This document shows positions 13,486 to 36,526 of a stretch of 39,439 bases of DNA, in pieces. A program made the position numbers and the translations under genes. Each line of letters opens with the position of its first letter. Within the stretch, counting starts at the first letter, position 1. Under the pieces are notes generated by a model. The model ran no database searches. It saw only the letters and a list, made by a program, of their open reading frames with translations, and was not told where the DNA came from. Source of the stretch: Ruminococcus sp. (GTDB taxonomy: Bacteria > Bacillota > Clostridia > Oscillospirales > Ruminococcaceae); the NCBI GenBank assembly GCA_017517145.1, contig JAFXAJ010000044.1, forward strand, positions 1 to 39,439, read 5' to 3'.

Positions 13486-13574
13486 GGAGAGGTATCGAAG
13501 CGGTCATAACGAGGCGGTCTTGAAAACCGTTTGACTTAACGGTCACGTGGGTTCGAATCCCACCCTCTCCGCCA
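13486..13574 (+). tRNA. tRNA-Ser (anticodon UGA)
   Basis: GGAGAGG pairs with CCTCTCC to give the acceptor stem, followed by discriminator G and an encoded CCA (13572-13574). The anticodon stem GCGGT/ACCGT encloses CTTGAAA, giving anticodon TGA. A long variable arm (TGAC-TTAACG-GTCA) identifies a class II tRNA, and the T arm reads GTGGG-TTCGAAT-CCCAC. It would read UCA/UCG-type serine codons. Confidence 0.97.
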
Positions 13575-13601
13575 ATTTTTTTACGGCGTTAAACGCCGGT
13601 T

Positions 13602-13691
13602 GCGGATTTACCCAAGTGGTGAAGGGGCTCCCCTGCTAAGGGAGTAGGTCGGGAAACCGGCGCGAGAGTTCAAATCTCTCAATCCGCGCCA
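13602..13691 (+). tRNA. tRNA-Ser (anticodon GCU)
   Basis: GCGGATT pairs with AATCCGC, followed by discriminator G and an encoded CCA. The anticodon stem CTCCC/GGGAG encloses CTGCTAA, giving anticodon GCT, which reads AGC/AGU serine codons. The long variable arm contains GTCGGGAAACCGGC, and the T arm is GAGAG-TTCAAAT-CTCTC. It follows the first tRNA by 27 bases, with a small GC-rich hairpin (CGGCG/CGCCG at 13584-13598) between them that may guide processing. Confidence 0.97.
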
Positions 13692-23710: not shown

Positions 23711-25270
23711 ATGCAGATCGTTAATACAGAACAAATGTTAAAAATTGAAAAACAATCAGAAAATCTCGGCGTTTCCCGTAAAGAACTTATGCAGAACGCA
23801 GGTGTTGCTATTGCTAAGCGTGTATTGCAGATATGCAAGCCTATGGATTATCTTACGGAATGCGCTAAAATAGTTTTTCTCGCCGGTAACGGAAATAACG
23901 GAGGTGACTGCTTTGCCGCCGCTAAAATTCTGTCATCACGAGGATATATCAGCGTTACTGTTATAAATCTTGTGAAAAAACCGTCAACTGAACTTGCTAA
24001 AGAACAGTTTTCACTGCTTCCTGACAGAGTGAATGTCATAACAGGCTATAATCCGGACAATTTATCCTTTGTCCGTTCTGCCATTGCAAATGCAGATGTA
24101 CTTATAGACGGCGTTTTCGGCACCGGCTTCAAAGGTTCTCTTGACCACGAATTAATTGAAATATTCTCTTTCGAAACAAGAGCTTACAAAATAGCTATTG
24201 ACATACCCAGCGGTGGAAATGCTTCCTCTGGCAATGTTTCAGAGGGATGTTTCATTGCAAATGAAACTCTTTGCCTTGGCTGTCTTAAATTTGGTATGAC
24301 TCAATATCCGTTAAAAAAATACTGCGGTAAAATCATTATCACCGATATAGATATTCCTTTGGATGCGTATTCGGTTGTTGACAACGAGCGTGGATATTTT
24401 CTTCTTGATAAAACCAGTCTGGCTGGATTTCCTCGCAAAAGATCAAATGACGCTCATAAAGGCTCGTTTGGCACTGCCCTTGTTATCGGCGGCTCAAATT
24501 CAATGCGTGGTGCTGCTGCTTTAGCTGCCCTTGGTGCTCTCCGCAGCGGTGCAGGACTGGTGAAAGTGGCTTCTGTGGGAAAATGTATTGATACTGTAAG
24601 CACCCTCGCTCCTGAATCAACTTACATAGAAATAAACAGTGACCGCGATGGATTTATGAGTCTTGATGCCGATACAAAAAAATTACTTTTAAAAGCAATA
24701 AAAAAATCAACTGCTATCGTTGTTGGTATGGGAATGGGTGTTACAAACGATACTAAATATATTGTTCGCTTTGTACTTGAAAATGCTCTTTGCCCTGTTA
24801 TTGTTGATGCAGATGGAATAAATTGCATTGCCTCTGACATAAATATATTATCGGACAGAAAGTGTGAGGTTATTCTCACGCCACATCCCGGAGAAATGGC
24901 AAGACTTATGAAATGCTCCGTTAAAAGCATTGCTGAAAATCGTCTTGAATCTGCGGAAAAATTTGCTGCAACTCATGGCGTAACAGTTGTTCTTAAAGGA
25001 GCAGGTACTATTATTGCTGATAAAAACAGCACCTCTGCAAATCACACCGGAAATCCCGGTATGAGCAAGGGCGGCAGCGGTGATGTTCTTGCTGGTATTA
25101 TTGCCTCAGCAGCTGCTCAGGGTATTCCTACCTATAGTGCTGCCTGTGCAGGTGTATACATACATGGTCTTGCCGGAGACAAAGCTGCTGAAAAATACGA
25201 ACAGGAAGCTATGCTCCCACGGGATATTGTAAACTGTCTATCTGATGCGTTCAGAATTCTGAAAAAATAA
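23711..25270 (+). CDS. nnr: Bifunctional NAD(P)H-hydrate epimerase / ADP-dependent dehydratase
   Basis: The 519-residue fusion repairs NADHX and NADPHX, damaged hydrated forms of the cofactors. The N-terminal YjeF_N epimerase domain (about 1-210) shows LAGNGNNGGDCFAAAK at 58-73. The C-terminal ribokinase-like dehydratase domain (about 230-515) shows LVIGGSNSMRGAAALAALGALRSGAG in parts, LTPHPGEMARL, and the catalytic motif GGSGDVLAG at 454-462 with D458. AAGGAA is a fair ribosome-binding site. It follows the two-TM gene by 20 bases. Both halves look intact. Confidence 0.96.
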   Translation: MQIVNTEQMLKIEKQSENLGVSRKELMQNAGVAIAKRVLQICKPMDYLTECAKIVFLAGNGNNGGDCFAAAKILSSRGYISVTVINLVKKPSTELAKEQFSLLPDRVNVITGYNPDNLSFVRSAIANADVLIDGVFGTGFKGSLDHELIEIFSFETRAYKIAIDIPSGGNASSGNVSEGCFIANETLCLGCLKFGMTQYPLKKYCGKIIITDIDIPLDAYSVVDNERGYFLLDKTSLAGFPRKRSNDAHKGSFGTALVIGGSNSMRGAAALAALGALRSGAGLVKVASVGKCIDTVSTLAPESTYIEINSDRDGFMSLDADTKKLLLKAIKKSTAIVVGMGMGVTNDTKYIVRFVLENALCPVIVDADGINCIASDINILSDRKCEVILTPHPGEMARLMKCSVKSIAENRLESAEKFAATHGVTVVLKGAGTIIADKNSTSANHTGNPGMSKGGSGDVLAGIIASAAAQGIPTYSAACAGVYIHGLAGDKAAEKYEQEAMLPRDIVNCLSDAFRILKK

Positions 25271-25350
25271 GGCAATACGCATTTTACGCCGAATTGCCCT
25301 GAAAATAACGGATGTTAAAAGGATATTTTAATTTGATCGGAGATTTTACC

Positions 25351-25971
25351 ATGAAAAAACTTTTAACATCCGTTTGTGCATTTTTATGCGTATTTTCCCT
25401 TGCCTCATGCAGCAATCCCATGTCAGCTTCTGTTAAACGACCAAATAATCTTGGAAATTCATTTACAGCAAAAATGAATATTTCACTGGATAAGCTTAAC
25501 GCTGAGGGCACTGTCACTCGTCACGGTGATAATATGTGGACAGCTGAATTTAATTCGCCTAATACACTCAGCGGCGTTACTCTTAATTTTGAGGAAAATA
25601 TTGTTAAGGCAAGCTATAAGGGACTTGATTTTTCTGTTCCTAAATCGGCTCTCCCTGTTAAGGCAATGCTTTCAAATCTTATTGAGGCTGTTGATACCGC
25701 TGCAAATTCCGAAGAACTCACAGGCACGGAAAATGAAGGTCTTCTCCTTATAGAAGGCTCCCTTGACGGCGGTGATTATGTAATTTCTGTTGATTCCAAC
25801 GGAAATCTCTGCCGATTTGAAATGCCTAATAATCTCCTTGATATTTCGTTTTCTGAAATATCAGCTTCTGCCCATTTGACTACTACAGTGGAATTTATCA
25901 CTACTTCCTGCGATACCGCAGTAACTGCCACCACAACTACTACTTCAGCGATAACGACTGTAGTTGAATAA
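25351..25971 (+). CDS. Lipoprotein of unknown function with Thr-rich C-terminal tail
   Basis: The 206-residue protein starts MKKLLTSVCAFLCVFSLASC, a lipoprotein signal peptide with lipobox LASC and the lipidated Cys at position 20. A beta-rich domain follows (about 35-175; GTVTRHGDNMWTAEFNSP, VKASYKGLDFSVPKSAL), which loosely recalls LolA-like carrier folds but is not clearly homologous by eye. The last 30 residues are rich in Thr, Ser and Val (TAVTATTTTTSAITTVVE). A threonine-rich stretch at the C-terminus is unusual for a lipoprotein and resembles the linkers in the dockerin and E/T-rich proteins nearby. The start at 25351 has GGAG eight bases upstream. Confidence 0.8.
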   Translation: MKKLLTSVCAFLCVFSLASCSNPMSASVKRPNNLGNSFTAKMNISLDKLNAEGTVTRHGDNMWTAEFNSPNTLSGVTLNFEENIVKASYKGLDFSVPKSALPVKAMLSNLIEAVDTAANSEELTGTENEGLLLIEGSLDGGDYVISVDSNGNLCRFEMPNNLLDISFSEISASAHLTTTVEFITTSCDTAVTATTTTTSAITTVVE

Positions 25972-25988
25972 TTACATTTATGGAATAT

Positions 25989-26033
25989 AAAAGCCATTTG
26001 CAGAAAACGTAAAAATTACTGCAAATGGCTTTT
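25989..26033. terminator. Bidirectional terminator between the lipoprotein and M16 peptidase genes
   Basis: A perfect 15-bp stem (AAAAGCCATTTGCAG, 25989-26003, with 26019-26033) around a 15-base loop ends in TTTT on both strands. It closes the plus-strand unit and the long minus-strand surface operon. Confidence 0.88.
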
Positions 26034-26035
26034 CG

Positions 26036-28912
26036 TTATATCTTCTTTATATCAAATTTTCGTTCAGGGAATTTTTTTGTTGTCTGCTTTATAACTTCCT
26101 CTGAGCCGATTGCACAGCTGTAAAATGTTTTTTGCAAATCATCGCAGGCACATATCAGCTTTTCTGCTGTCATTGAAAGCATTTCACTGCGAAGCTTTCT
26201 GCGGCTTTCATAAGTTATGCCTCTGAAATACATTCCGTCAGATGCATCAGCATATTCCGCATCTGTAAGAAGCGGTTCACCGGAGGCTATACTGCTGATA
26301 ATATATGACGTAATATCAGGATTATTATTGCAGTATTCCATAAGGAAATCTGCTGATTTCTCAAATATTTCCAAACTATTCATCGGTGATGGGTCACAAT
26401 AAGAATGAAAACAAGCTTCTTTCATGTTGTTTACATTACAGCCTGAACCATAAGCACCGCCTTTTACTCGTACTTCATTCCATAAATATTCATAAGTAAT
26501 TATTGTTGAAGCTACAGACCATACAGCTTTGTCGCCTGTTCTTTCACTTGTTACAGCTCCTGAATATGCTGTTGCTGAGGGGATTATAATACAGCTGTTT
26601 TCAGGAATGTCAGCTGTAAATTTCATTTCTTCGACTGTGCAAGGCTCCCCTGTCGGCAGCATATCGGTAAGCGAAGATATGTCAATATCCCCTGCTGTTC
26701 CTGCACTGACCGTCATTCGGGATTTACAGAATATACGCTTTGCAATTCCGTTTATCTCATGGAGCAGCTCGGAAAAATCATCTTCTGAAAGCTGATTCAC
26801 ACGACGCAATGCCTCATAGGCTTCATATCCACGTATATACTCAATCATCGCAGATTCAGCTGATGTACGGGCTGTTGTACGTCTGACAGAAAAACAATGT
26901 CCTTCTGAAATAATCTCCTGTTTCATATCCTCTTCGTCCTGTCGCAGCTGCATTGACGCTGTATCAAGATGATTGTACTCAGTTTCAAGGAGAAGCTCTG
27001 CAATAAGTTCAAGTGCTTCTGTAGTATTTCTTGAAAGGAATCGGGTTTTTACTTCAAAGAATACACGGCATTTTTCCGGTGTATTTTCTTTGCCCATTGG
27101 AATTATGTTTGTTGAAAGATTTCCCAGAGTACCAATAATTCTTCTTTGAAGCTCCTGTCCGCTGCTTTTTTCAGTCGGCAGTTCAGCTATAAGTTTGTCA
27201 AGAATCAGAAGCTTCTGGATTTCTTCAATTGAAAAATCACTGACATCAAAGAAAAGTGTCATTACTGTAATTTCTGGTTCACGGACAGGATGACTGAGTA
27301 TTTTTACACCATTTCTTTCTATTTCTTCCGTAATAAAATCAATGGGTTCAGCTGATATTTCTGACAGTGATAATCTCGGCAGCGTTAATATTGCTTCTTC
27401 GCTGTCAGGGGTACTCTGCCATTCTGTAAGACGACGGTTAAGTTCAATGAGTTCTGTCTTTTCATCCTCGCTCATAGCGGATATTTCCGCCAAAACACGC
27501 TGACGTTCTTTTTCAGCCTGTTCCTCTCCATAAGTTTCAGATGGCAGCATATACAGCACAGAACGTCCGCTTTTATCAAGTAACCATTCAGATAAAAGTT
27601 CTTCAAAATATTTGCTGTCCAGTTTTTTTCTGAGATTATCGAATACTTCGCTTCTGTCAATATACATCAGCGGATCTCCGCCATAAAGCCATGATGACAT
27701 TGAATCAATACAGCGTGTAAGACCTTTTGGTTCTTCGGATTCTCTGTATCTGAATTCGCAGCGATTTATTGCAGCTTCAAGAATATCTCTGCCTATCCCC
27801 TGTTCTGCAAGTTTTTCTGCGGATTTTTCAGCTGCTTCAATTAATGCACTGCCGTTTTCACGCTCAATATTATTGAATTTAAGCACTCCCACAGGCTGTA
27901 AAATTCCATCTGAAAAAGTAAGATCAAGGTCAAGACACATTTTTGTATCAAGAATATCTTTTTTGAACGGAGCGTCATTGCAGCCTGCTATTGCTTCGCA
28001 CAATACACCGAAAGCTGCATTTTTCTCCCTGTCTTTCCATGAGGAAAGTATCTTTCCGATTGCAAGAAACGCTTTTGAATCGCTTTCATCGTCACCTGAG
28101 GAATCATAGTAAAGTTCCCTGACAGTACCGTCAACCGGCTTCTGAAAAGCAATTTCGTGTTTTTCGCCGTTGCTGTCATACTCCGAAAGATAACTGTCAA
28201 TAAGTGAAAGTATCTCGTTCAGGTCAACTGCTCCGTCAAGATATATATACGAATTTGAAGGATGATAAAAGCGTTTGTGAGTATCCAGAAACTGCTCATA
28301 TTCCAGATCCGGAATCTCCGTGGGAAGCCCGCCGAACTCATACTGATATGATGTATCAGGAAAAAGAAGCCTGTTCATTTCACTTTCGATTCGCTCATGA
28401 ACACTGGAGATATACCCCTTCATCTCATTGAAAACAACACCCTTGTACACAGCTTCTTCAGGGTTTCCATTATATTCTGTGTGATGCCCCTCCTGATAGA
28501 AAATATCGGGAACAGTATATATCAGCGGCTTGAAAACTGCATCAAGATAAACTTCCGCAAGATTCATAAAATCCTTGTTATTGCGGCTTGAAACAGGATA
28601 CATTGTCATATCAGGATATGTCATTGCATTGAGAAATGTATTCATTGAACCTTTAAGAAGATACAAAAAGGGTTCTTTTACAGGATATTTCTCTGAACCG
28701 CCAAGAACAGAATGTTCAATTATATGAAATACACCTGTATTATCTTCCGGAACTGTTTTAAATGTTATGCAGAACAGTTTATTCTCCTCGCCGTTATTCA
28801 TCCATGCAAGAGGTGCTCCTGTCTTATCATGAAGCATTTCTACAAATTCGCCCTTATCGCACTGACGTATGTTTTTTATTGTGAAACCGTATAACTTTTC
28901 ATTTATTCTCAT
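26036..28912 (-). CDS. M16C family zinc metallopeptidase (presequence protease/insulinase type)
   Basis: The 958-residue protein has the inverted zinc motif HxxEH in VFHIIEHSVLGG (H63, E66, H67) and the distal Glu in VVFNEMKG (about E163), so the active site is intact. Two-halves architecture and length match the M16C group, which degrades short peptides inside a closed chamber. No signal peptide is seen, so it should be cytoplasmic. A start at 28912 (MRINEKLYGF) is favoured; the in-frame ATG at 28927 overlaps the dockerin stop. The ribosome-binding site is weak, so translation may be coupled to the dockerin gene, six bases upstream. It is the last gene of the surface operon. Confidence 0.9.
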   Translation of the reverse strand: MRINEKLYGFTIKNIRQCDKGEFVEMLHDKTGAPLAWMNNGEENKLFCITFKTVPEDNTGVFHIIEHSVLGGSEKYPVKEPFLYLLKGSMNTFLNAMTYPDMTMYPVSSRNNKDFMNLAEVYLDAVFKPLIYTVPDIFYQEGHHTEYNGNPEEAVYKGVVFNEMKGYISSVHERIESEMNRLLFPDTSYQYEFGGLPTEIPDLEYEQFLDTHKRFYHPSNSYIYLDGAVDLNEILSLIDSYLSEYDSNGEKHEIAFQKPVDGTVRELYYDSSGDDESDSKAFLAIGKILSSWKDREKNAAFGVLCEAIAGCNDAPFKKDILDTKMCLDLDLTFSDGILQPVGVLKFNNIERENGSALIEAAEKSAEKLAEQGIGRDILEAAINRCEFRYRESEEPKGLTRCIDSMSSWLYGGDPLMYIDRSEVFDNLRKKLDSKYFEELLSEWLLDKSGRSVLYMLPSETYGEEQAEKERQRVLAEISAMSEDEKTELIELNRRLTEWQSTPDSEEAILTLPRLSLSEISAEPIDFITEEIERNGVKILSHPVREPEITVMTLFFDVSDFSIEEIQKLLILDKLIAELPTEKSSGQELQRRIIGTLGNLSTNIIPMGKENTPEKCRVFFEVKTRFLSRNTTEALELIAELLLETEYNHLDTASMQLRQDEEDMKQEIISEGHCFSVRRTTARTSAESAMIEYIRGYEAYEALRRVNQLSEDDFSELLHEINGIAKRIFCKSRMTVSAGTAGDIDISSLTDMLPTGEPCTVEEMKFTADIPENSCIIIPSATAYSGAVTSERTGDKAVWSVASTIITYEYLWNEVRVKGGAYGSGCNVNNMKEACFHSYCDPSPMNSLEIFEKSADFLMEYCNNNPDITSYIISSIASGEPLLTDAEYADASDGMYFRGITYESRRKLRSEMLSMTAEKLICACDDLQKTFYSCAIGSEEVIKQTTKKFPERKFDIKKI

Positions 28913-28917
28913 ATTTA

Positions 28918-29985
28918 TCAATCCCATGAAGGTGTTCCGCCTGTGGATACCTTTGAATAGTATACAAGTATTGCTGACGCATCAGATGAATCTATTGCTC
29001 TGTCATTATTTACATTCGCTGCCGCAATCTGCTTTGAACTAAAGGATGTTTCTCCTCCTGTAGAAAGGACTGCATATTCCGAAAGTACAAGTGACGCATC
29101 GGAAGCGTCAACTATGCCGTCCATATTGACATCGCCTTTCATAACATTATTGAGATGTACAGCTATTTCCTTTTTATTCTCTGCATCATTCACAACATTC
29201 CATGATACATCTGAATCCTTGTCATCTACAGTGAATTTGTACATTATTTCACGATAGCTGTCGGGATTGTCGTTGCCGTCAGGAATTGTAAAGCTGTCAG
29301 AATAGCTGTCGGCAGTAATATTGTACTTTCCGCCGCTGAGAATCACGGATATTTTGTAAATGCGATAATCTCCGTCAACAGAATCACGTCCCTCAACGTC
29401 AAAACCATAAGTTTTTCCGCCTCTGAGAGTTGCTTTATAATACTCATGTGCATCATATTCAGGAGATTCATATACTATTGTAACATCCGCAGAAACACCT
29501 GCCGGAATTTCTACTAAAACTCTGCCGTTTATATCAGCTTTATTTATATGCTCACATACTGCTGTTACTTTTTCTGCCTGAATAGCAGGTTTGGTTGTAG
29601 TTGAAGAAGTAGTGGTTGTACCTGTAGTTGATGTAGTTTCTGTTGTAGTGTTTTTTGCTGTAGTGGTTGTTGTCTCTGTAGTGAATACAGAGGTAGTTGT
29701 AGCAGTGGGCTGATTCTTTGTTGCTGTAGTCTGGCTTGCTGTTGTTAAATCAGCAGCTGTTACCAATGTTGTTGTAGTGCTTGTTTCAGTTGCAGTGCTT
29801 GGTCTCGTTGATGTAGTCGATAAATTTTTTGTTTCAACAAGAAATGCAGAGTTATCAATCTCAATAATAGAATTATCAGATATGTCGTTAGCCTTTAAAT
29901 TTCCCTCTGCATAGGCATTGATTGATGCGGGGGCTGCTGCAAGTGCAGCAGCTGTAATAAGTGATAAAAATTTTCTATGTCTCAT
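28918..29985 (-). CDS. Secreted dockerin type I protein with Thr-rich linker
   Basis: The 355-residue protein has a signal peptide (MRHRKFLSLITAAALAAAPA...AYAEG), a Thr/Ser/Val-rich linker at about 53-135, an uncharacterised beta-rich domain of about 140-280 (CEHINKADINGRVLVEIPAG), and a C-terminal dockerin from about 284. The first calcium loop DVNMDGIVDASD is canonical; the second, NVNNDRAIDSSD, has Asn at position 1 and Arg in place of the usual Gly. Dockerins bind cohesins in cellulosome- or amylosome-like complexes; no cohesin is in this window. Start M3 (29985) has AGAGG eight bases upstream. No catalytic domain is recognised. It lies between the DHHW and M16 genes with almost no gaps. 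Confidence 0.88.
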   Translation of the reverse strand: MRHRKFLSLITAAALAAAPASINAYAEGNLKANDISDNSIIEIDNSAFLVETKNLSTTSTRPSTATETSTTTTLVTAADLTTASQTTATKNQPTATTTSVFTTETTTTTAKNTTTETTSTTGTTTTSSTTTKPAIQAEKVTAVCEHINKADINGRVLVEIPAGVSADVTIVYESPEYDAHEYYKATLRGGKTYGFDVEGRDSVDGDYRIYKISVILSGGKYNITADSYSDSFTIPDGNDNPDSYREIMYKFTVDDKDSDVSWNVVNDAENKKEIAVHLNNVMKGDVNMDGIVDASDASLVLSEYAVLSTGGETSFSSKQIAAANVNNDRAIDSSDASAILVYYSKVSTGGTPSWD

Positions 29986-29996
29986 TGTCATTACCT

Positions 29997-31391
29997 CTAA
30001 TTATTAAAATCAGTGTAAACTGCTCTGCCATTTTCATTGAGAACAGTTATTCTTATGTTGTCTGTATTTGTCTCCGCTGGAAGATATGCGGCAAATCCTC
30101 TGTTTGTATACTCATATTCCTCCAGAAGATTTTCTTCAAAGCATTGAAATGCCTCATAGCATTTTCCATCACATTCTGCAATTATTCTGTATCTGCTGTT
30201 ATCAAAAAATTCTTCCGTCAGGAAACCGTATATATGCTTCATTCCGTTATTGTCAATAGATTTTATAACAGCTTTGCTGCTGTCCGCATATTCAGCGGCT
30301 GTATCTGTTATTTCACATTCAGGTGCTTCCATAACAGCTGCCGATTTCAGCAGGTTGCCAAGATTTCTCTCTACAAGCTCGATTATAACAGTATCATCGC
30401 TGTTTACGTTGTCAAGCCTGTACGGTACTGCTCTTGAAAATTCCGCTGTTTCAAACATCTCCGCCATATATGGCAGTATAGCCTCGCCGTAGGAATCGCG
30501 GTACATCAGCAGATTTCCCTTAGAATGGGGATTTGATGTTGTGATTGATATATCGTCAAGTCCTCTGAAACGGCTTGTATATTCATAACTGTACTCGTAA
30601 TCGTTATGAAGCTGCATATCTTTTGCATCTTCAGCTGGGTAAAGCATTGCTGCAAGGTCTCCCAGACGGTCATATTCGATATGCCAGCCGCTGCCCGTTC
30701 CGCATGAACCTCTGCCAAGCTTATTCATCAGCATAGTGTGAGCTGCGTAAGCTCCGAAATTATTCCAGTGAGTATCCGTCTTGTGATAAAGCGGCGTGGG
30801 AGATTCAAGTCCCATAAGCGCCGATTTCATATCAAAATAGAAATCATCCTCCGAAATCTCTGCTGTAAGCCTTTCAAGGTTACTTTCATTGTCAGAAGGA
30901 ACATAGTTGTAAGGCATATTTTCGGGATAAACTGTGTTTTTATTCGGAGCAGCAAAAAATATAAATTCTGCGCCCTTTTCTGTACAATACTTCTCCATTA
31001 TACGAAGATTGCTTGCTATACTGCCAATCTCCATTTCGCTGAGCGTATCAAGTCGAAGAAAATCATTGATAGTTTCTCCGTAGTAAAGCCAACCGTCTTT
31101 TCCCACTATAACATCATCGTCAGCTGAGGTTGCTGTCAGCGCTGATTTAAGCCGTCCATCAGCATTGACAAGCTGCTGTCGGAATGCAAAATGCTCTGAG
31201 AAATATGATTCAAATTCATCAAAAAAATCAAAATTTATACCGCCCTCTTCTGCCTTTACAGAGGGAAATTCCGCAAGCTGACGTTTTTCTTTTGAAGCGT
31301 CATTCTTTACAAATGGCGTACATACCGCAGGTACAAGACATAAACCGAAAAATGCGTCAGTATATATTCTGTAAAAAATATTTTTTTTCAT
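29997..31391 (-). CDS. DHHW/AlgX-like SGNH acetyltransferase partner of MBOAT
   Basis: The 464-residue protein has one N-terminal membrane segment or uncleaved signal (about 7-27) and an extracellular AlgX/AlgJ-type SGNH domain. The Asp-x-His-Trp motif is DTHW at 206-209 and the nucleophile Ser is S300 in LMYRDSYGEAILPYM, so the catalytic residues appear intact. A C-terminal beta domain of about 390-464 may bind the polymer. Family members pass acetyl groups, delivered across the membrane by an MBOAT protein, to extracellular polysaccharides. The MBOAT gene lies 12 bases upstream, a very common pairing. GGGAGG lies upstream of the start at 31391. Confidence 0.9.
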   Translation of the reverse strand: MKKNIFYRIYTDAFFGLCLVPAVCTPFVKNDASKEKRQLAEFPSVKAEEGGINFDFFDEFESYFSEHFAFRQQLVNADGRLKSALTATSADDDVIVGKDGWLYYGETINDFLRLDTLSEMEIGSIASNLRIMEKYCTEKGAEFIFFAAPNKNTVYPENMPYNYVPSDNESNLERLTAEISEDDFYFDMKSALMGLESPTPLYHKTDTHWNNFGAYAAHTMLMNKLGRGSCGTGSGWHIEYDRLGDLAAMLYPAEDAKDMQLHNDYEYSYEYTSRFRGLDDISITTSNPHSKGNLLMYRDSYGEAILPYMAEMFETAEFSRAVPYRLDNVNSDDTVIIELVERNLGNLLKSAAVMEAPECEITDTAAEYADSSKAVIKSIDNNGMKHIYGFLTEEFFDNSRYRIIAECDGKCYEAFQCFEENLLEEYEYTNRGFAAYLPAETNTDNIRITVLNENGRAVYTDFNN

Positions 31392-31403
31392 ACCCTCACC
31401 TCC

Positions 31404-32807
31404 CTAAAATCTGAAATATATAAACGGATTGTAGGACGCTGAGGACAAGGATAATATACAAAGTCCCAAAAGTACCATGGATATGCCATATACGCTGTAT
31501 TCATATACCGCAGCTGATTTGGCAGATTTTGCTGTGCTTTTGATTTTCTCCATAACAGGCATGGAAAATACAGCCGCAAATACAAATGTTATTAGATAAA
31601 GCGGTGTCAGCTGACTCATAAACATTGCCCATTGTTCTGAATTTCCCGACGGAACAAACATACGACCTATATATTTGCAGGCATCTGTCAGATTTTCAGC
31701 TCTGAAAAATACAAATGCAAGGGTTGTTACAAATATAGCATATATATGTCTGAATGGTCTGTACCACTTTTCTGTGTTGATTATCTTATATGACTCTATC
31801 ATGAGGAATACTCCATTAATAAGTCCCCACACAATAAAATTCAGACTTGCTCCATGCCATAACCCTGTACAGAAAAATACTATCAGTTTGTTCAGGGCTG
31901 TTCTTACTTTTCCCTTTCTGTTTCCGCCAAGGGGAATATACAGATATTCCTTGAACCATGTGGAAACTGATATATGCCATCTTCTCCAGAATTCCTGCAT
32001 ACTCTGCGATATATAGGGATAATCGAAGTTTTCCTTGAAGGTAAAGCCGAACATTGCTCCAAGTCCGATTGCCATATCACTGTATCCGCTGAAATCAAAA
32101 TATATCTGGAAAAGATATGATAATGCTCCCAGCCATGCCAACGGAATTGAAAGCTCCGACATTTCAAGACTGTATACATAATCAGCTGCATACGCCATGG
32201 TATTGGCAATAAGCAGCTTTTTTGATAGTCCTGTTATAAATCGTTTTATGCCCTCTGCTGTCATCTGCGGCGTTACTGTACGATTATCTATCTGGTCTGC
32301 AAAATCGTAATACTTTACAATTGGACCTGCTACAAGCTGAGGGAAAAATGTAATGTACAATGCCAGCTTATAAAGATTTTTCTGAATATAATCAGGTGAT
32401 TTATACGCATCTATGACATAGGACATCGCCTGAAATGTATAAAAAGATATACCTATGGGCAAAGCTATATTCGGCACTGTCACGTTAAGAAACGGAAGCT
32501 TATTCAGCATATCCGCACCAAAACCTGCATATTTGAATATACCCAGCATTAAAAGATTTGCCGTTACGGCAGCGGAAAGACACAGTTTCCTGTGCTTGTT
32601 TCCGCTTTTCATTGCAAGTCCGAATACATAATTCATCAGTATTGATATAAACATCAGAATTACTGCTTTGGGTTCGCCGTAAGTATAGAATAATATACTG
32701 AATAACAGTAATATTACGTTTTTTATGGTAATATTCGGTATAATTCTGTAGAGAATATATACCGCTGTCAGAAATATAAAGAGGAATACAGGACTGCTGA
32801 ATACCAT
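31404..32807 (-). CDS. MBOAT family O-acyltransferase (AlgI/DltB-like)
   Basis: The 467-residue polytopic membrane protein has about ten or more membrane segments. The AlgI signatures are visible: FFPQLVAGPIVKYYDF, YFDFSGYSDMAIGLG, EFWRRWHISVSTWFKEYLYI (H278) and FFCTGLWHGASLNFIVWG with the active-site H318. It transfers acetyl groups from a cytoplasmic donor across the membrane. Its size and the adjacent DHHW gene point to polysaccharide O-acetylation rather than D-alanylation, since no dltA or dltC is present. AAGGAG stands seven bases upstream, overlapping the stop of the lipoprotein gene. Confidence 0.95.
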   Translation of the reverse strand: MVFSSPVFLFIFLTAVYILYRIIPNITIKNVILLLFSILFYTYGEPKAVILMFISILMNYVFGLAMKSGNKHRKLCLSAAVTANLLMLGIFKYAGFGADMLNKLPFLNVTVPNIALPIGISFYTFQAMSYVIDAYKSPDYIQKNLYKLALYITFFPQLVAGPIVKYYDFADQIDNRTVTPQMTAEGIKRFITGLSKKLLIANTMAYAADYVYSLEMSELSIPLAWLGALSYLFQIYFDFSGYSDMAIGLGAMFGFTFKENFDYPYISQSMQEFWRRWHISVSTWFKEYLYIPLGGNRKGKVRTALNKLIVFFCTGLWHGASLNFIVWGLINGVFLMIESYKIINTEKWYRPFRHIYAIFVTTLAFVFFRAENLTDACKYIGRMFVPSGNSEQWAMFMSQLTPLYLITFVFAAVFSMPVMEKIKSTAKSAKSAAVYEYSVYGISMVLLGLCILSLSSASYNPFIYFRF

Positions 32808-32816
32808 GAATTCTCC

Positions 32817-33533
32817 TTATACAATTGTATAGAATACAAGTTCTGCTGCAGCGCCGCCGTCATACTTTACATCAAGCTCTTTTTCACCGCTGTAGTAAAT
32901 TGTATATGCGCCTGCTGCTTCACCTGCTCCGTATATTGCTTCTACGTCTGCCTGTGAACTTCCAATTGTAATTCCTGTATCTGTTGAATAATTGCTACTT
33001 GTAATTGTAACGCAGTTTATCTTTTCAATTCCGTCAAGAACATAGCATTCAATAACAATTCCGTCGTATGTATATATCTTTGAATCTGCGCCATTTGAAA
33101 AACAAGCAGGCGCTGTAGTTACATTTACAGGTTCACCAAGAGCAGAAATAATTCCGCCTGCTTCACTGTGAAGTGTATCAAAACTAAATGTTACATTCTG
33201 CGGCTCAGGTGAAGGCTCGGGCTCCTCCGGTTCAGGCTCTGCTTCTGTTTCTTCTTCTGTAGCTTCTTCTGTGGGAGCTTCTGTTGTCTCCTCTGCTCCT
33301 GTAGTAGTTTCAGTAGTTTCAGCTGTTGTTGTTTCTGCCTCTGTTTCAGCTTCTGTTGATGCCTCTGTAGTTACCTCTGTTTCAGCTTCTGTTATTGATT
33401 CTTCGGTAGTATCTGCCTCGGTTGAGAGAACAGGAAGATCAGGAACTGTATTTTCTTCTGCCTTATCACATGATACTGCTGCTAATGACATAATTGCTCC
33501 GAGAGCAAGGAGGAATGCTGTTTTCTTCTTCAT
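32817..33533 (-). CDS. Lipoprotein with long Thr/Glu-rich stalk
   Basis: The 238-residue protein has a lipoprotein signal peptide (MKKKTAFLLALGAIMSLAAVSC, split here only for length; Cys22), then a low-complexity region of about 30-115 made of Thr, Glu and Ala ending in a PEPEEPEPSPEP proline stretch, then a compact C-terminal domain of about 118-238 with STDTGITIGSSQADVEAIYG. That last segment, a G(I/M)xIGSSxxDVxxxYG pattern, is like the repeats of small secreted domains that recall SmpA/BLIP-type folds. I read it as a membrane-tethered binding domain held away from the cell surface by the stalk. It stands between the cell-wall-repeat gene and the MBOAT gene, with gaps of 22 and 9 bases. Confidence 0.85.
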   Translation of the reverse strand: MKKKTAFLLALGAIMSLAAVSCDKAEENTVPDLPVLSTEADTTEESITEAETEVTTEASTEAETEAETTTAETTETTTGAEETTEAPTEEATEEETEAEPEPEEPEPSPEPQNVTFSFDTLHSEAGGIISALGEPVNVTTAPACFSNGADSKIYTYDGIVIECYVLDGIEKINCVTITSSNYSTDTGITIGSSQADVEAIYGAGEAAGAYTIYYSGEKELDVKYDGGAAAELVFYTIV

Positions 33534-33555
33534 TTTTTATTTATCCTTTCAAAAA

Positions 33556-34341
33556 TCAATAATATTTCGGGTATACGTACTGATAGAACGTATAGTTCTG
33601 TGACTGGAGATAGCTGAATGATACTCCGCAATAGCCGTTGCAGGTGTCATAGTTAATCCATGTCTTTGTCTTTGAATCGTAAACCTGATTCCAGTAATGG
33701 TCACCTGTACCTCTGCCTGTACCATATACTATTCGGCATTTAAGCCCTGCCTGCTGGAAAAGAAGGTCTGTTACTGCTGCAAAATAGTAACAAACAACAT
33801 ATCTGTTGTCCAGTGAATAGTTTGCGAAATATGCCCAGCCCTTCTTGTTAATCTGGTCAAGAGTTCTTGTTGACTCAATATGACGATACATATTATTTTT
33901 AGTTACATAGTTGTATATCTTCACGGGATCTTTTCCTGTGGAATTAATTATTGTCTGTGCACGTTTCTGAACAGCTGAAAGAGGAACAGCCATGCCATCT
34001 TCGTTAAGATTGTATCCATCATGCACCTTATTTGTTACAAGCTTGCCGTTAGCCTGACTGAAATAATACTTGTTTCCTCCGATTGTATTCCAGCCTGTTA
34101 CCATTATACCGTTTTCGCCGAAGAAATATTTTCCGTCCTCAAGTGTCACCCAGCCCATTACCATTGCGCCGTCGTCACCAAAATAGTGCTTGTTTCCGTC
34201 AACTATAAGCCTGCCCTTCATCATAAGAGCTGTATCAGGATGAAGATAATATTTCTTTCCGTCAATTTCAGTTATACCTGTGGCTGCTTTCCCGTCTTCC
34301 TTAAAGTAATATTTTCCTTCTTCACGTTCAAGCCAGCCTGT
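33556..34341 (-). pseudogene. C-terminal part of the cell-wall-repeat protein, with transglutaminase-like domain, after an amber codon
   Basis: This stretch continues in the same frame as the gene upstream after a TAG at 34342-34344. It holds further cell-wall repeats (GKYFFGENGIMVTGW, NKYYFSQANGKLVTN), then a transglutaminase/cysteine-protease-like domain of about 130 residues. The triad is visible: Cys in RYVVCYYFAAV, His in GTGDHYWNQVY, Asp in INYDTCNG, at about codons 635, 666 and 683 of the joined frame. Without readthrough it would not be made: the first in-frame ATG pair (34224) has no ribosome-binding site and would lack a signal peptide. It ends 22 bases before the lipoprotein start. 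Confidence 0.8.
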
Positions 34342-35694
34342 CTACATTGTACCGTCTGTACCGAAATAATACTTTCCGTCATCATCAACAACAGTATCTT
34401 TAACCATGACAGATTTCTGAGGGTCAATGTAATATTTTTTTCCGTCTGACTCTACAATTCCCGATGCAGCTGTACCGTCCTCGTTGAAATAATATTTGCC
34501 ATCATCAAGTTCTACCCAGCCTGTCTGCATTGTACCGTCATCGGGACTGAAATAATACTTCTTATCATTAATAAGACGCTTTCCGGTGAGCATTTCGCCT
34601 GTTTTCGTATCAAAACAGTAATATTCCCCGTTATAAGACTGTTTACCCTTGAGCATTGAAAAATCTTCACCGAAAAGATATTTCTTTCTGTCTAATTCAA
34701 GGATTCCGGAATATGCTGAGTAATCATCACCAAAATAGTATTTTACATCGTCAATTTCAGCAAGTCCTTTATTTAACACGCCCTGTTCGTTGGTATAATA
34801 AAGCTTGTCCTCATATTTGCAAAGTCCTGTCATACGATTTCCTTTTTCATCGAAAATATATGACTTGCCATTTATTTCAGTAACACCGCTGGCATATTTT
34901 CCGTCGGGATAAAAATACTTTATGTTTCCGTTTATTTCAAGCAGACCTGTCTGAAGCTTTCCTGTTTCTTCAGCAAAGAAATACTCAACACCTTCAATCT
35001 CGGTTACGCCTTCTTTTTTACCGTTTTCAACATCTACATAGTAACAGTCGTTTCCGATATTAAAGAATCCCAACTTGATTTCGCCGCTGACAGTATCGTA
35101 ATAGTATTCCTTACCATCGACATCAACCCAGCCAACCATTTCCTTGCAGTCTGTGCCAAAAACATAAGGGGCTTTGTCAATTATGATTTTGCCAGATGCA
35201 AGACTTCCGTCTGCTGTTACATAGTATACGGAATCATCCTTTGTGACAAATCCCTGTTCATCTATAACAGCACCTTTTTTGTCAGTGATATACTTATAAC
35301 CTTTATCATCTGTATAGACAGAATCTGTTATTTTTCCGTTTTCAGGCTCAACATAGAATTTATCGCCGCACTCCTCTATTTTTCCATAGACAGCCTTACC
35401 CGTTTTATGGTCATAGTAGCGTCTTTTTCCGTTAACTGTTCTCCAGCCTGTTTTCAGAACGCCGTTTTTAGAAAAAAGGTAATATTCACCGTCTATTTCC
35501 TGTTCTCCGGTGAGCATTGTGCCGGATTCATTATAATAGTATATTTTTCCGTCTGTATCAGTCACCCACTGAGAAATATAGGTGCTGCCGGATGATTCAT
35601 CACCTTCCGCAGCAAAAGTAACAGCGGGAACTGAGACAGCAAAACATAATGCCGCTGATGTCGCTGTTATCATAATTTTCTTATGTACCTTCAT
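34342..35694 (-). CDS. Secreted choline/glucan-binding-type repeat protein (N-terminal part before amber stop)
   Basis: The first 450 codons encode a signal peptide (MKVHKKIMITATSAALCFAV...TFAAEG) and a long run of roughly 20-residue cell-wall-binding repeats of the PF01473 kind, each with an aromatic core and a turn, for example GWVELDDGKYYFNEDGTAASG-like units (shorter form: KYYFNEDGTAASG). Such solenoids bind choline, glucans or wall polymers. The stop is TAG at 34342-34344 within a repeat reading GTM-stop-TGW; the equivalent place in another repeat is GTMQTGW, so a single CAG to TAG change explains it. The start at 35694 has AAAGGAGG upstream; 53 more codons are open but hold the promoter. 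The first gene of the surface operon. Confidence 0.88.
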   Translation of the reverse strand: MKVHKKIMITATSAALCFAVSVPAVTFAAEGDESSGSTYISQWVTDTDGKIYYYNESGTMLTGEQEIDGEYYLFSKNGVLKTGWRTVNGKRRYYDHKTGKAVYGKIEECGDKFYVEPENGKITDSVYTDDKGYKYITDKKGAVIDEQGFVTKDDSVYYVTADGSLASGKIIIDKAPYVFGTDCKEMVGWVDVDGKEYYYDTVSGEIKLGFFNIGNDCYYVDVENGKKEGVTEIEGVEYFFAEETGKLQTGLLEINGNIKYFYPDGKYASGVTEINGKSYIFDEKGNRMTGLCKYEDKLYYTNEQGVLNKGLAEIDDVKYYFGDDYSAYSGILELDRKKYLFGEDFSMLKGKQSYNGEYYCFDTKTGEMLTGKRLINDKKYYFSPDDGTMQTGWVELDDGKYYFNEDGTAASGIVESDGKKYYIDPQKSVMVKDTVVDDDGKYYFGTDGTM

Positions 35695-35754: not shown

Positions 35755-35783
35755 ATTATACATCTTATGAAGATAAAAGTCAA
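35755..35783 (-). promoter_or_regulatory. Promoter of the surface operon
   Basis: On the minus strand TTGACT (35783-35778) and TATAAT (35760-35755) are separated by 17 bases, 61 bases before the start at 35694. No other promoter or terminator is evident between the genes down to 26036, so it may drive all six. Confidence 0.8.
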
Positions 35784-35908: not shown

Positions 35909-36526
35909 TTAATTTTCACTGTTTAATAAACTTTTTAAATCTCCGTTAAGTCCGAATATACACTCCTGAATTATTCTGGAAATACATTGTATTGGTTTAT
36001 AACAATCATCCTTAATCCATTGTACTACAACAGCATTTATGCCGCTAAGATAATAAATCATAACGTATTTTCTGTCTTCAACAGGATAATTAAAGCGTTG
36101 AAGAATTGGCTCAAATATATTTGCATACATACGATTAAATATCTTTTCAAATCCGAATATTCCTGAATTTGAAAGAACTGTAGAAAATATACAATGATTA
36201 TCTTTTATAAACGAAAGATAAGGATTAAGATATTCTTCAGTGATATAATTTAATTCATTAAGCTTGGAATCAGAAAAACTGAAAGCAATCATCTCTGTAT
36301 TAATTGAGTAATAGGAAAGAAAGCTGTCAATTAAATAATGCATTGTCTCGTCAAGCAGGTCGCATATATTTTCGTAATGAAGGTAAAATGTGGAGCGATT
36401 AACACCTGCTTCCTTGCAGACTTCGCTTATGCTTATATATTCAAATGGTTTCTTTTCAAGCAGCTTCATCAAAGCTTTATCCATTTTTACAGCAGTATTG
36501 AAATACTTACTTTCCGATTTGTTCAC
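35909..36526 (-). CDS. TetR/AcrR family transcriptional regulator
   Basis: The 205-residue protein has an N-terminal helix-turn-helix typical of TetR: FEYISISEVCKEAGVNRSTF followed by YLHYENICDLLDETM at about residues 29-62. The C-terminal part is helical and of the clostridial type found in many TetR proteins with unknown ligands. The likely start is a GTG at 36526 with GAGG six bases upstream. It is the second gene of a two-gene unit, 13 bases after a small membrane protein, so it probably controls its own operon and that protein; the ligand is unknown. Confidence 0.92.
   Translation of the reverse strand: MNKSESKYFNTAVKMDKALMKLLEKKPFEYISISEVCKEAGVNRSTFYLHYENICDLLDETMHYLIDSFLSYYSINTEMIAFSFSDSKLNELNYITEEYLNPYLSFIKDNHCIFSTVLSNSGIFGFEKIFNRMYANIFEPILQRFNYPVEDRKYVMIYYLSGINAVVVQWIKDDCYKPIQCISRIIQECIFGLNGDLKSLLNSEN

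What the first reader, a model, noticed from the sequence alone, without database searches (positions are those of the whole stretch)
26036..35694. Six-gene surface operon joining wall-binding/transglutaminase-like, lipoprotein stalk, O-acetylation pair, dockerin and M16 peptidase
Seen: the genes run in one direction with gaps of 22, 9, 12, 11 and 5 bases, a strong promoter in front and a bidirectional terminator behind, with none visible between. Known: MBOAT plus DHHW/AlgX-like proteins O-acetylate extracellular polysaccharides in systems such as alginate and peptidoglycan modification; dockerins join cellulosome-type complexes. Inference: the operon builds or decorates a surface-anchored complex, possibly acetylating the wall polymer that the repeat protein binds. 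I know of no described system with this combination.
Basis: partly seen in the sequence, partly recalled or inferred. Interest (0 to 1): 0.7.

Follow-up and report, generated by a model that had tools for sequence, protein, structure and literature searches.

The report
Surface acetylation and transglutaminase-like gene operon
A gut bacterium related to fibre digesters carries a conserved set of surface genes that pairs enzymes likely to acetylate wall sugars with a wall-bound enzyme and a cellulosome-type docking protein, a combination that I did not find described.

Summary
Gene A (choline-binding repeats + transglutaminase-like domain) is split here by an in-frame TAG at 34344-34342. The conserved unit is five genes, A-B-C-D-E: the M16 gene F adjoins E in 15 of 74 genus loci and does not follow the cassette across 125 genomes.

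A-B-C-D-E keeps its order in 69 of 74 loci; the other five end at contig edges. R. flavefaciens FD-1 has it. Terminator-like sites follow E in 23 of 52 loci, but A, B, C or D in 1-3 of 66-73.

Outside the genus, D relatives lie near a transglutaminase gene in 31 of 53 loci and a B-domain gene in 38 of 53; other MBOAT loci in 1 and 0 of 25. At class level it was 5 and 8 of 12. Fusions join AlgX to B, AlgX to SLH-transglutaminase, and dockerin to A. B-C-D can be missing as a block from A-E.

Best reading: B-C-D O-acetylates a wall polymer on which A docks, and E connects A to cohesins. Polymer and substrates are inferred.

The parts
33556..35694 (-). Gene A: signal peptide (by eye), choline-binding-type wall repeats, C-terminal transglutaminase-like domain; split by an in-frame TAG at 34344-34342
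   Evidence: frame and stop; Pfam on the two pieces apart; Cys and His in 114 of 114 domains, Asp in 108 of 114
34342..34344 (-). In-frame TAG, codon 451 of gene A
   Evidence: TAG ends genes C and D in this window
32817..33533 (-). Gene B: lipoprotein with Thr/Glu-rich linker and a conserved C-terminal domain without Pfam or NCBIfam match over cut-off; lipobox Cys22 and domain Cys144
   Evidence: the domain Cys is kept in 116 of 116 aligned sequences
31404..32807 (-). Gene C: MBOAT acyltransferase ending in the acyl-shuttle motif FIYFRF
   Evidence: FXYXXF fits 74 of 74 genus and 39 of 39 outside loci
29997..31391 (-). Gene D: AlgX/DHHW-type SGNH acetyltransferase with D206/H208 and S300
   Evidence: profile match to B. 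cereus PatB1, E 1.9e-17
28918..29985 (-). Gene E: secreted protein (signal by eye) with Thr-rich linker, a domain without Pfam match, and a type I dockerin
26036..28912 (-). Gene F: M16C/PreP-type peptidase, no visible signal peptide; a local neighbour, not part of the conserved unit
35755..35783 (-). Promoter TTGACT-17-TATAAT in front of gene A
25989..26033 (.). Two-way terminator-like hairpin, 15 bp

Best explanation
A-B-C-D-E is one transcription unit for a cell-surface module. C (MBOAT) takes acetyl from acetyl-CoA and loads it on the tyrosine of its own C-terminal FIYFRF tail. The tail hands the acetyl to Ser300 of D, an AlgX/PatB1-type SGNH transferase outside the membrane, which puts it on a wall glycopolymer. 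B is the membrane-anchored partner of that pair. A is a wall-docked enzyme with a transglutaminase-like Cys-His-Asp triad that binds the wall through its repeats, and E, a dockerin protein, connects A to a cohesin scaffold. Acetylation by B-C-D would set where or how firmly A, and with it E, sits on the wall. Shown by sequence and gene order: the unit, the motifs, the partnerships, the block-wise absence of B-C-D. Inferred: the acyl group, the polymer, the substrate of A, the role of B, binding of E to a cohesin.
For: Order kept in 69 of 74 genus loci, the other 5 truncated by contig ends. B occurs in all 74 genomes with C, and strongly only in two more: G115 (its contig ends inside C) and G018 (A-B-E). 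Outside the genus: transglutaminase in 31 of 53 and B in 38 of 53 loci, against 1 of 25 and 0 of 25 other MBOAT loci. Fusions: AlgX+SLH+transglutaminase in one frame (L227); AlgX+B domain (L213, L214); dockerin inside A (L185, L188, L189, L190, L225). The anchor on A varies while the enzyme domain stays: choline-binding repeats, ChW (L212), SLH (L228, L229). Catalytic motifs are complete. The acyl-shuttle mechanism is shown for PatAB (passages of PMC12148441). Acetylation of secondary wall polymer, the work of the DHHW protein PatB1, is described as an essential step for S-layer assembly (passages of PMC9487903), and PatB1 is D's best solved relative. A-E persists without B-C-D in 7 loci. Cohesin matches were found in 124 of 125 genus genomes, over the family cut-off in 121.
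Against: No polymer, acetylation or binding was measured. In this very genome A is split by a stop. The transglutaminase is missing near 22 of 53 outside loci: ten loci of one genus (g216) all have B but only one a transglutaminase, 3.4 kb away; eight loci with weak D matches (110-155 bits) have neither partner; three more are cut by contig ends. At class level it is near only 5 of 12, though B is near 8 of 12. A-E existing alone shows that A does not always need the acetylation unit. Conserved order shows linkage, not a shared substrate.
Confidence: 0.45

Rival explanations
1. A is the main actor: its Cys-His-Asp domain crosslinks or trims wall peptides or surface proteins (a covalent anchoring or wall-remodelling enzyme), and acetylation by B-C-D only protects or gates the substrate.
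For: Triad Cys and His in 114 of 114, Asp in 108 of 114. A-E stands without B-C-D in 7 loci. Papain-like relatives include peptidases, transglutaminases and acetyltransferases (passages of PMC10318531).
Against: Outside the genus the transglutaminase protein often travels with C-D (31 of 53) and is fused to D in L227, so acetylation seems more than an accessory. The profile match to solved transglutaminase-like proteins is too weak to tell crosslinking from hydrolysis (best E 0.0026).
Confidence: 0.26
2. B-C-D acetylates glycans on the Thr-rich linkers of B, E and other surface proteins rather than a wall polymer.
For: B carries a long Thr/Ser/Glu-rich linker in the sequences I looked at, and so do E of the window and of some relatives.
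Against: E of FD-1 (L163) and of some other loci has no such linker; A of the window has none. The MBOAT-SGNH pairs listed in PMC12148441 (passages) act on polymers. Glycosylation of these linkers was not tested.
Confidence: 0.08
3. The gene order is ordinary neighbourhood conservation with no joint function.
For: Related genomes share order by descent; M16 gene F shows that a neighbour can ride along. At longer range the transglutaminase is often absent.
Against: The association recurs in several families with gene-order changes (B before C or after D), with three kinds of fusion, and is nearly absent at other MBOAT loci (1 of 25 and 0 of 25). B-C-D is missing as a block between A and E.
Confidence: 0.06

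Closest known systems
PatA1/PatB1 of Bacillus cereus (secondary cell wall polysaccharide O-acetylation)
   Same: MBOAT plus DHHW/AlgX-type SGNH pair; D's profile finds PatB1 first among solved chains (E 1.9e-17), and D has the D-x-H-W and [RK]DS motifs
   Different: The passages seen mention no transglutaminase, B lipoprotein or dockerin partner for PatA1/PatB1; ALGX scores above DHHW for D in Pfam
AlgI/AlgJ/AlgX/AlgF alginate O-acetylation
   Same: MBOAT plus circularly permuted SGNH transferases and a further protein of unknown function, AlgF (passages of PMC9487903)
   Different: Gram-negative exopolysaccharide system; B was not compared with AlgF directly and got no family match over cut-off; no alginate genes were sought here
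DltB/DltD/DltX teichoic acid D-alanylation
   Same: MBOAT-to-SGNH acyl transfer with an FXYXXF shuttle (passages of PMC12148441)
   Different: The shuttle lies on the MBOAT itself; the NCBIfam DltB score of 140.9 is far below its cut-off of 375
Dockerin proteins with transglutaminase-like domains in R. flavefaciens FD-1 (PMC2930009)
   Same: Same genus; dockerin joined to a transglutaminase-like domain, as in A of L185, L188-L190 and L225
   Different: Those lie in a tandem array ORF01263-01267 (the text gives five; its table labels four transglutaminase-like and one LRR); the passages seen mention no wall repeats and no MBOAT/SGNH partner

Membership tests
MBOAT-SGNH O-acyltransferase system | MBOAT protein adjacent to an SGNH-type extracytoplasmic protein | tested here: met
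   C and D adjacent, gap 12
MBOAT-SGNH O-acyltransferase system | C-terminal acyl-shuttle motif FXYXXF on the MBOAT | tested here: met
   FIYFRF in the window protein; the motif fits in 74 of 74 genus and 39 of 39 outside loci
MBOAT-SGNH O-acyltransferase system | Ser-His-Asp catalytic residues of the SGNH partner | tested here: met
   D-x-H-W and [RK]DS in 73 of 73 and 40 of 40; columns
MBOAT-SGNH O-acyltransferase system | Acetyl transfer to an extracellular polymer | not testable with these tools
   needs biochemistry
DltB/DltD D-alanylation | DltB equivalog score over cut-off | tested here: not met
   140.9 bits against 375
Transglutaminase-like superfamily (PF01841) | Profile match over cut-off with Cys-His-Asp triad | tested here: met
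   37.5 bits against 23 on the downstream piece of A; Cys and His 114 of 114, Asp 108 of 114
Transglutaminase (crosslinking enzyme) | Glutamine-lysine crosslinking activity | not testable with these tools
   the profile alone does not separate it from peptidases; best solved match E 0.0026
Cellulosome component | Type I dockerin | tested here: met
   E 32.9 bits against 22.9
Cellulosome component | Cohesins encoded in the same genome | tested here: met
   2 matches in the window's own genome, best E 6.7e-15; 124 of 125 genus genomes, 121 over cut-off
Cellulosome component | Binding of this dockerin to a cohesin | not testable with these tools
   needs a binding assay
Choline-binding protein | Choline-binding-type repeats over cut-off | tested here: met
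   PF19127 141.8 and 74.4 bits on the two pieces, cut-off 27
Choline-binding protein | Binding to choline on teichoic acid | not testable with these tools
   ligand unknown; the TIGR04035 glucan-binding repeat score is below cut-off on both pieces

The most novel reading that the evidence does not exclude
An extracytoplasmic acyl relay with two cysteine stations. The acetyl (or other acyl) group moves from the MBOAT tyrosine to the serine of D, then to the invariant cysteine of lipoprotein B as a thioester, and the transglutaminase-like Cys-His-Asp enzyme A takes it to acylate an amine or sugar in the wall at the spot where its repeats dock, while E ties that spot to the cohesin scaffold. B's domain cysteine is kept in 116 of 116 sequences (they were gathered with a profile that includes it, so this is partly circular). 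The arylamine N-acetyltransferase profile matches transglutaminase-like domains of several relatives at 19-24 bits, over its cut-off of 22.8 in L202 and L266 only (others L212, L228, L225, L191). Proteins joining D to B and D to A domains exist.
Probability: 0.1. Interest if true: 0.87.

Novelty: new variant of a known kind. Interest (0 to 1): 0.62.

Why it matters
MBOAT-SGNH pairs are known acetylators of wall and matrix polymers. If this module works as proposed, it links that chemistry to how surface enzymes, and through a dockerin possibly parts of the cellulosome system, are placed on the wall of fibre-digesting gut bacteria. It gives testable partners for two conserved domains without a match over cut-off in the libraries searched (the B domain and the E domain) and for a wall-bound transglutaminase-like enzyme, in strains such as R. 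flavefaciens FD-1.

Tried and rejected
M16 as a member: rejected; next to E in 15 of 74 loci, independent of the cassette across 125 genomes (of 62 with F, 32 have C and 30 do not; Fisher P 0.10), no visible signal peptide.

TAG read as an amino acid: not favoured; TAG ends genes C and D here.

DltB/DltD membership: not met.

B as a known family: no Pfam or NCBIfam match over cut-off; the only solved match was E 0.044, taken as chance.

With the repeats included, the search mostly returned other proteins with such repeats, bacterial toxins among them; this likeness of repeats says nothing about a toxin function, and the Pfam scan of A shows no other domain than repeats and Transglut_core over cut-off.

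A first count outside the genus used 40 of 53 matching loci (transglutaminase 29, B 32).

Class-level expectation that most loci would have a transglutaminase nearby: not met, 5 of 12.

Gain or loss of B-C-D: the tree leaves most rows without B-C-D at open or weakly supported forks. It counted changes only among labelled rows, with the 73 cassette rows unlabelled, so I claim only that absence looks secondary because the four outgroup rows carry A-B-C-D.

Printed descriptions: searched open-licence full texts. None joins a bacterial transglutaminase-like protein to an MBOAT/SGNH pair in what I saw: listings (12 of 31 papers, 10 of 43, all found in the others) and passages of PMC2930009, PMC3573020, PMC9487903, PMC12148441, PMC5301203 and PMC10318531. 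Most subscription papers are not in that library.
Full report
What is there. The six genes lie as described at 26036-35694 on the minus strand, with gaps of 22, 9, 12, 11 and 5 bases. A promoter stands in front (TTGACT-17-TATAAT, 35783-35755) and a two-way hairpin behind. The first gene is not intact: its frame from ATG 35694 meets TAG at 34344-34342. The two pieces searched apart show wall repeats on both and the transglutaminase-like domain on the second. The window is the whole of one contig of a draft genome of 1.96 Mb, 80% complete.

Does the order hold? The MBOAT gene found a relative in 124 of 125 genus genomes and a close orthologue (over 700 bits) in 74, own included, at 70-89% identity outside the own genome (counted). 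I fetched all 74 loci outside the own genome (73 genomes, one twice). A-B-C-D-E follows in that order in 69 of 74. The other five lack A (L043, L070, L106) or E (L077, L100) where the contig ends (first pass). Some A or E frames are themselves cut at contig ends. A scan of named genomes with a D profile kept 80 of 339 loci, R. flavefaciens FD-1, R. flavefaciens YRD2003 and Anaerotruncus sp. MC2020 among them, each of these three with A-B-C-D-E. These overlap the unnamed set and are not counted again.

Transcription. Terminator-like sites within 150 bases 3' of each gene: A 1 of 66, B 3 of 73, C 2 of 73, D 1 of 71, E 23 of 52 (loci with F left out), F 3 of 15. The promoter pattern TTGAC[AT]-N15..18-TATAAT lies upstream of A in 18 of 64 loci, against 0.05 expected from shuffles. 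So the unit probably runs from A to E in loci without F; in the window it probably runs on into F.

M16 is a passenger. F follows E in 15 of 74 loci. It occurs in 62 of 125 genomes, one of them by a marginal match. 32 of these have the cassette and 30 do not, while 42 cassette genomes lack F (Fisher P 0.10).

Co-occurrence. The B domain was found in 79 of 125 genomes, one match each but for G072 with two: all 74 genomes with C, plus G115, G018 and three weak matches, G102, G089, G110. G115 is a cassette cut at a contig end inside C, and G018 has A-B-E without C-D. The three weak ones lie in another neighbourhood. The transglutaminase profile found 89 of 125 genomes at E 1e-8, a part of them only by weak matches (under 50 bits).

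A-E without B-C-D. Of nine strong transglutaminase copies (over 170 bits) outside complete cassettes, leaving out G115, seven are A directly followed by E (L252-L258; E of L256 is interrupted by undetermined bases), two of them then by F, and one is A-B-E (L259). The ninth (L292, G086) ends at its contig's end and tells nothing. Since outgroup genera have A-B-C-D, absence of B-C-D in the genus looks secondary. The tree is too poorly resolved to count losses.

Beyond the genus. The D profile found 35 of 297 family and 27 of 394 order genomes at E 1e-30, own genus included. That makes 53 loci outside the genus, all fetched in the end. Within 4 kb and on the same strand a transglutaminase domain was present in 31 of 53 and a B domain in 38 of 53 (29 and 32 of 40; 2 and 6 of 13). 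The misses are not random: eight loci with weak D matches (110-155 bits) have neither partner; ten loci of genus g216 all have B but only one a transglutaminase, 3.4 kb away; L200, L205 and L210 are cut by contig ends; L204 has one just beyond 4 kb; L198 has none. The comparison set was 25 other MBOAT loci, 23 from relatives and 2 from the own genome, picked by hand from the weaker matches listed, neither at random nor strictly by rank; five of them (L107-L111) I had read before: 1 of 25 and 0 of 25. Fisher P was 1.6e-6 and 2.7e-10, counting loci as independent, which related genomes are not. At class level 14 of 391 genomes matched at E 1e-60; the 12 outside the family gave transglutaminase 5 of 12 and B 8 of 12. 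B is the steadier partner at long range.

Fusions and swaps. L227 has ALGX, SLH and Transglut_core in one frame. L213 and L214 carry D and the B domain in one frame. Dockerins sit inside A in L185, L188, L189, L190 and L225. The anchor of the transglutaminase protein is choline-binding repeats in the genus, ChW in L212, SLH in L228 and L229; L211 shows no anchor domain in Pfam. So different wall-binding parts serve one enzyme domain.

Active sites. MBOAT tails fit FXYXXF in 74 of 74 and 39 of 39. Most MBOATs of the comparison set fit it too, so this marks the mechanism, not the module. D has D-x-H-W and [RK]DS in 73 of 73 and 40 of 40. The transglutaminase Cys and His are kept in 114 of 114 and the Asp in 108 of 114. 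B has one domain cysteine kept in 116 of 116, short matches left out and the gathering profile including that cysteine. Cysteines of D kept in the genus are mostly not kept outside it (8 of 39 and 1 of 39, and 32 of 39 for the one in its N-terminal segment), so a fixed disulphide between B and the outer part of D is not indicated.

How it probably works. PatAB work shows acetyl passing from the MBOAT to its C-terminal tyrosine, then to the SGNH partner and on to the polymer (passages of PMC12148441). C and D carry the same motifs. D is closest among solved structures to PatB1, whose SCWP acetylation is described as essential for S-layer self-assembly (passages of PMC9487903). In our set SLH anchors also occur on the transglutaminase protein. 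I therefore propose that B-C-D acetylates the polymer on which A docks, and that E ties A to cohesins. In FD-1, group-4 dockerins bind the surface cohesin ScaE (passages of PMC5301203); the group of E's dockerin was not tested. The polymer, the acyl group, the substrate of A and the role of B remain inference.

Known or new. Each enzyme family is known, and dockerin-transglutaminase proteins are known in FD-1 (passages of PMC2930009). In the searches made I saw no description of the joined module. I rate it a new variant of the MBOAT-SGNH kind.

Noticed in passing
L266:2993-6312: In a genus member without the cassette (G096), a dockerin + SH3 + transglutaminase-like protein is followed by a protein that begins like a lipoprotein and by an Acyl_transf_3 protein: a possible look-alike using another acyltransferase family.
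   Followed up: partly
L109, L110, L111: Other MBOAT genes in the genus, each followed by a DHHW-like gene by eye, have their own Thr/Glu- or Ser/Glu-rich lipoprotein directly upstream, without the B C-terminal domain.
   Followed up: partly
L090, L095, L098 (L147, L164, L148): An extra protein of 127-223 aa lies between A and B, with a weak match to the full-length B profile.
   Followed up: no
L191, L230: The transglutaminase/AlgX/B genes lie beside a protein that looks like a VanY-type peptidase and one that looks like a repeat protein of the RCC1 kind (names recalled from the sequences).
   Followed up: no
L227:6932-9532: One frame joins AlgX, SLH and transglutaminase-like domains.
   Followed up: yes
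g216 loci L218-L220, L223, L224, L285-L289: Ten loci of one genus keep MBOAT, AlgX and B together, with a transglutaminase domain near only one of them: a natural variant in which B stays and A is absent nearby.
   Followed up: partly
L187:11830-15561: In one subclade the cassette, with a long E of 773 aa, is followed by a penicillin-binding transpeptidase protein and a GH26 enzyme with a dockerin-like stretch below cut-off.
   Followed up: partly
L163:10333-12771: In R. flavefaciens FD-1 the gene after E is a GH5 cellulase with binding modules.
   Followed up: no
window 35909-36526: A TetR-type regulator gene lies upstream of gene A on the same strand; it is also next to A in L034 and L036.
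   Followed up: partly
window 25312-25971: A small lipoprotein facing F, next to the gene at 23711-25270 (looks like an NAD(P)HX repair enzyme, recalled); the pair is kept downstream of F in several close relatives.
   Followed up: no
window 13486-13688: Two tRNA genes on the plus strand.
   Followed up: no
G072:C46 and G072:C55: The same cassette with identical scores occurs on two contigs of one draft genome, probably an assembly duplicate.
   Followed up: no
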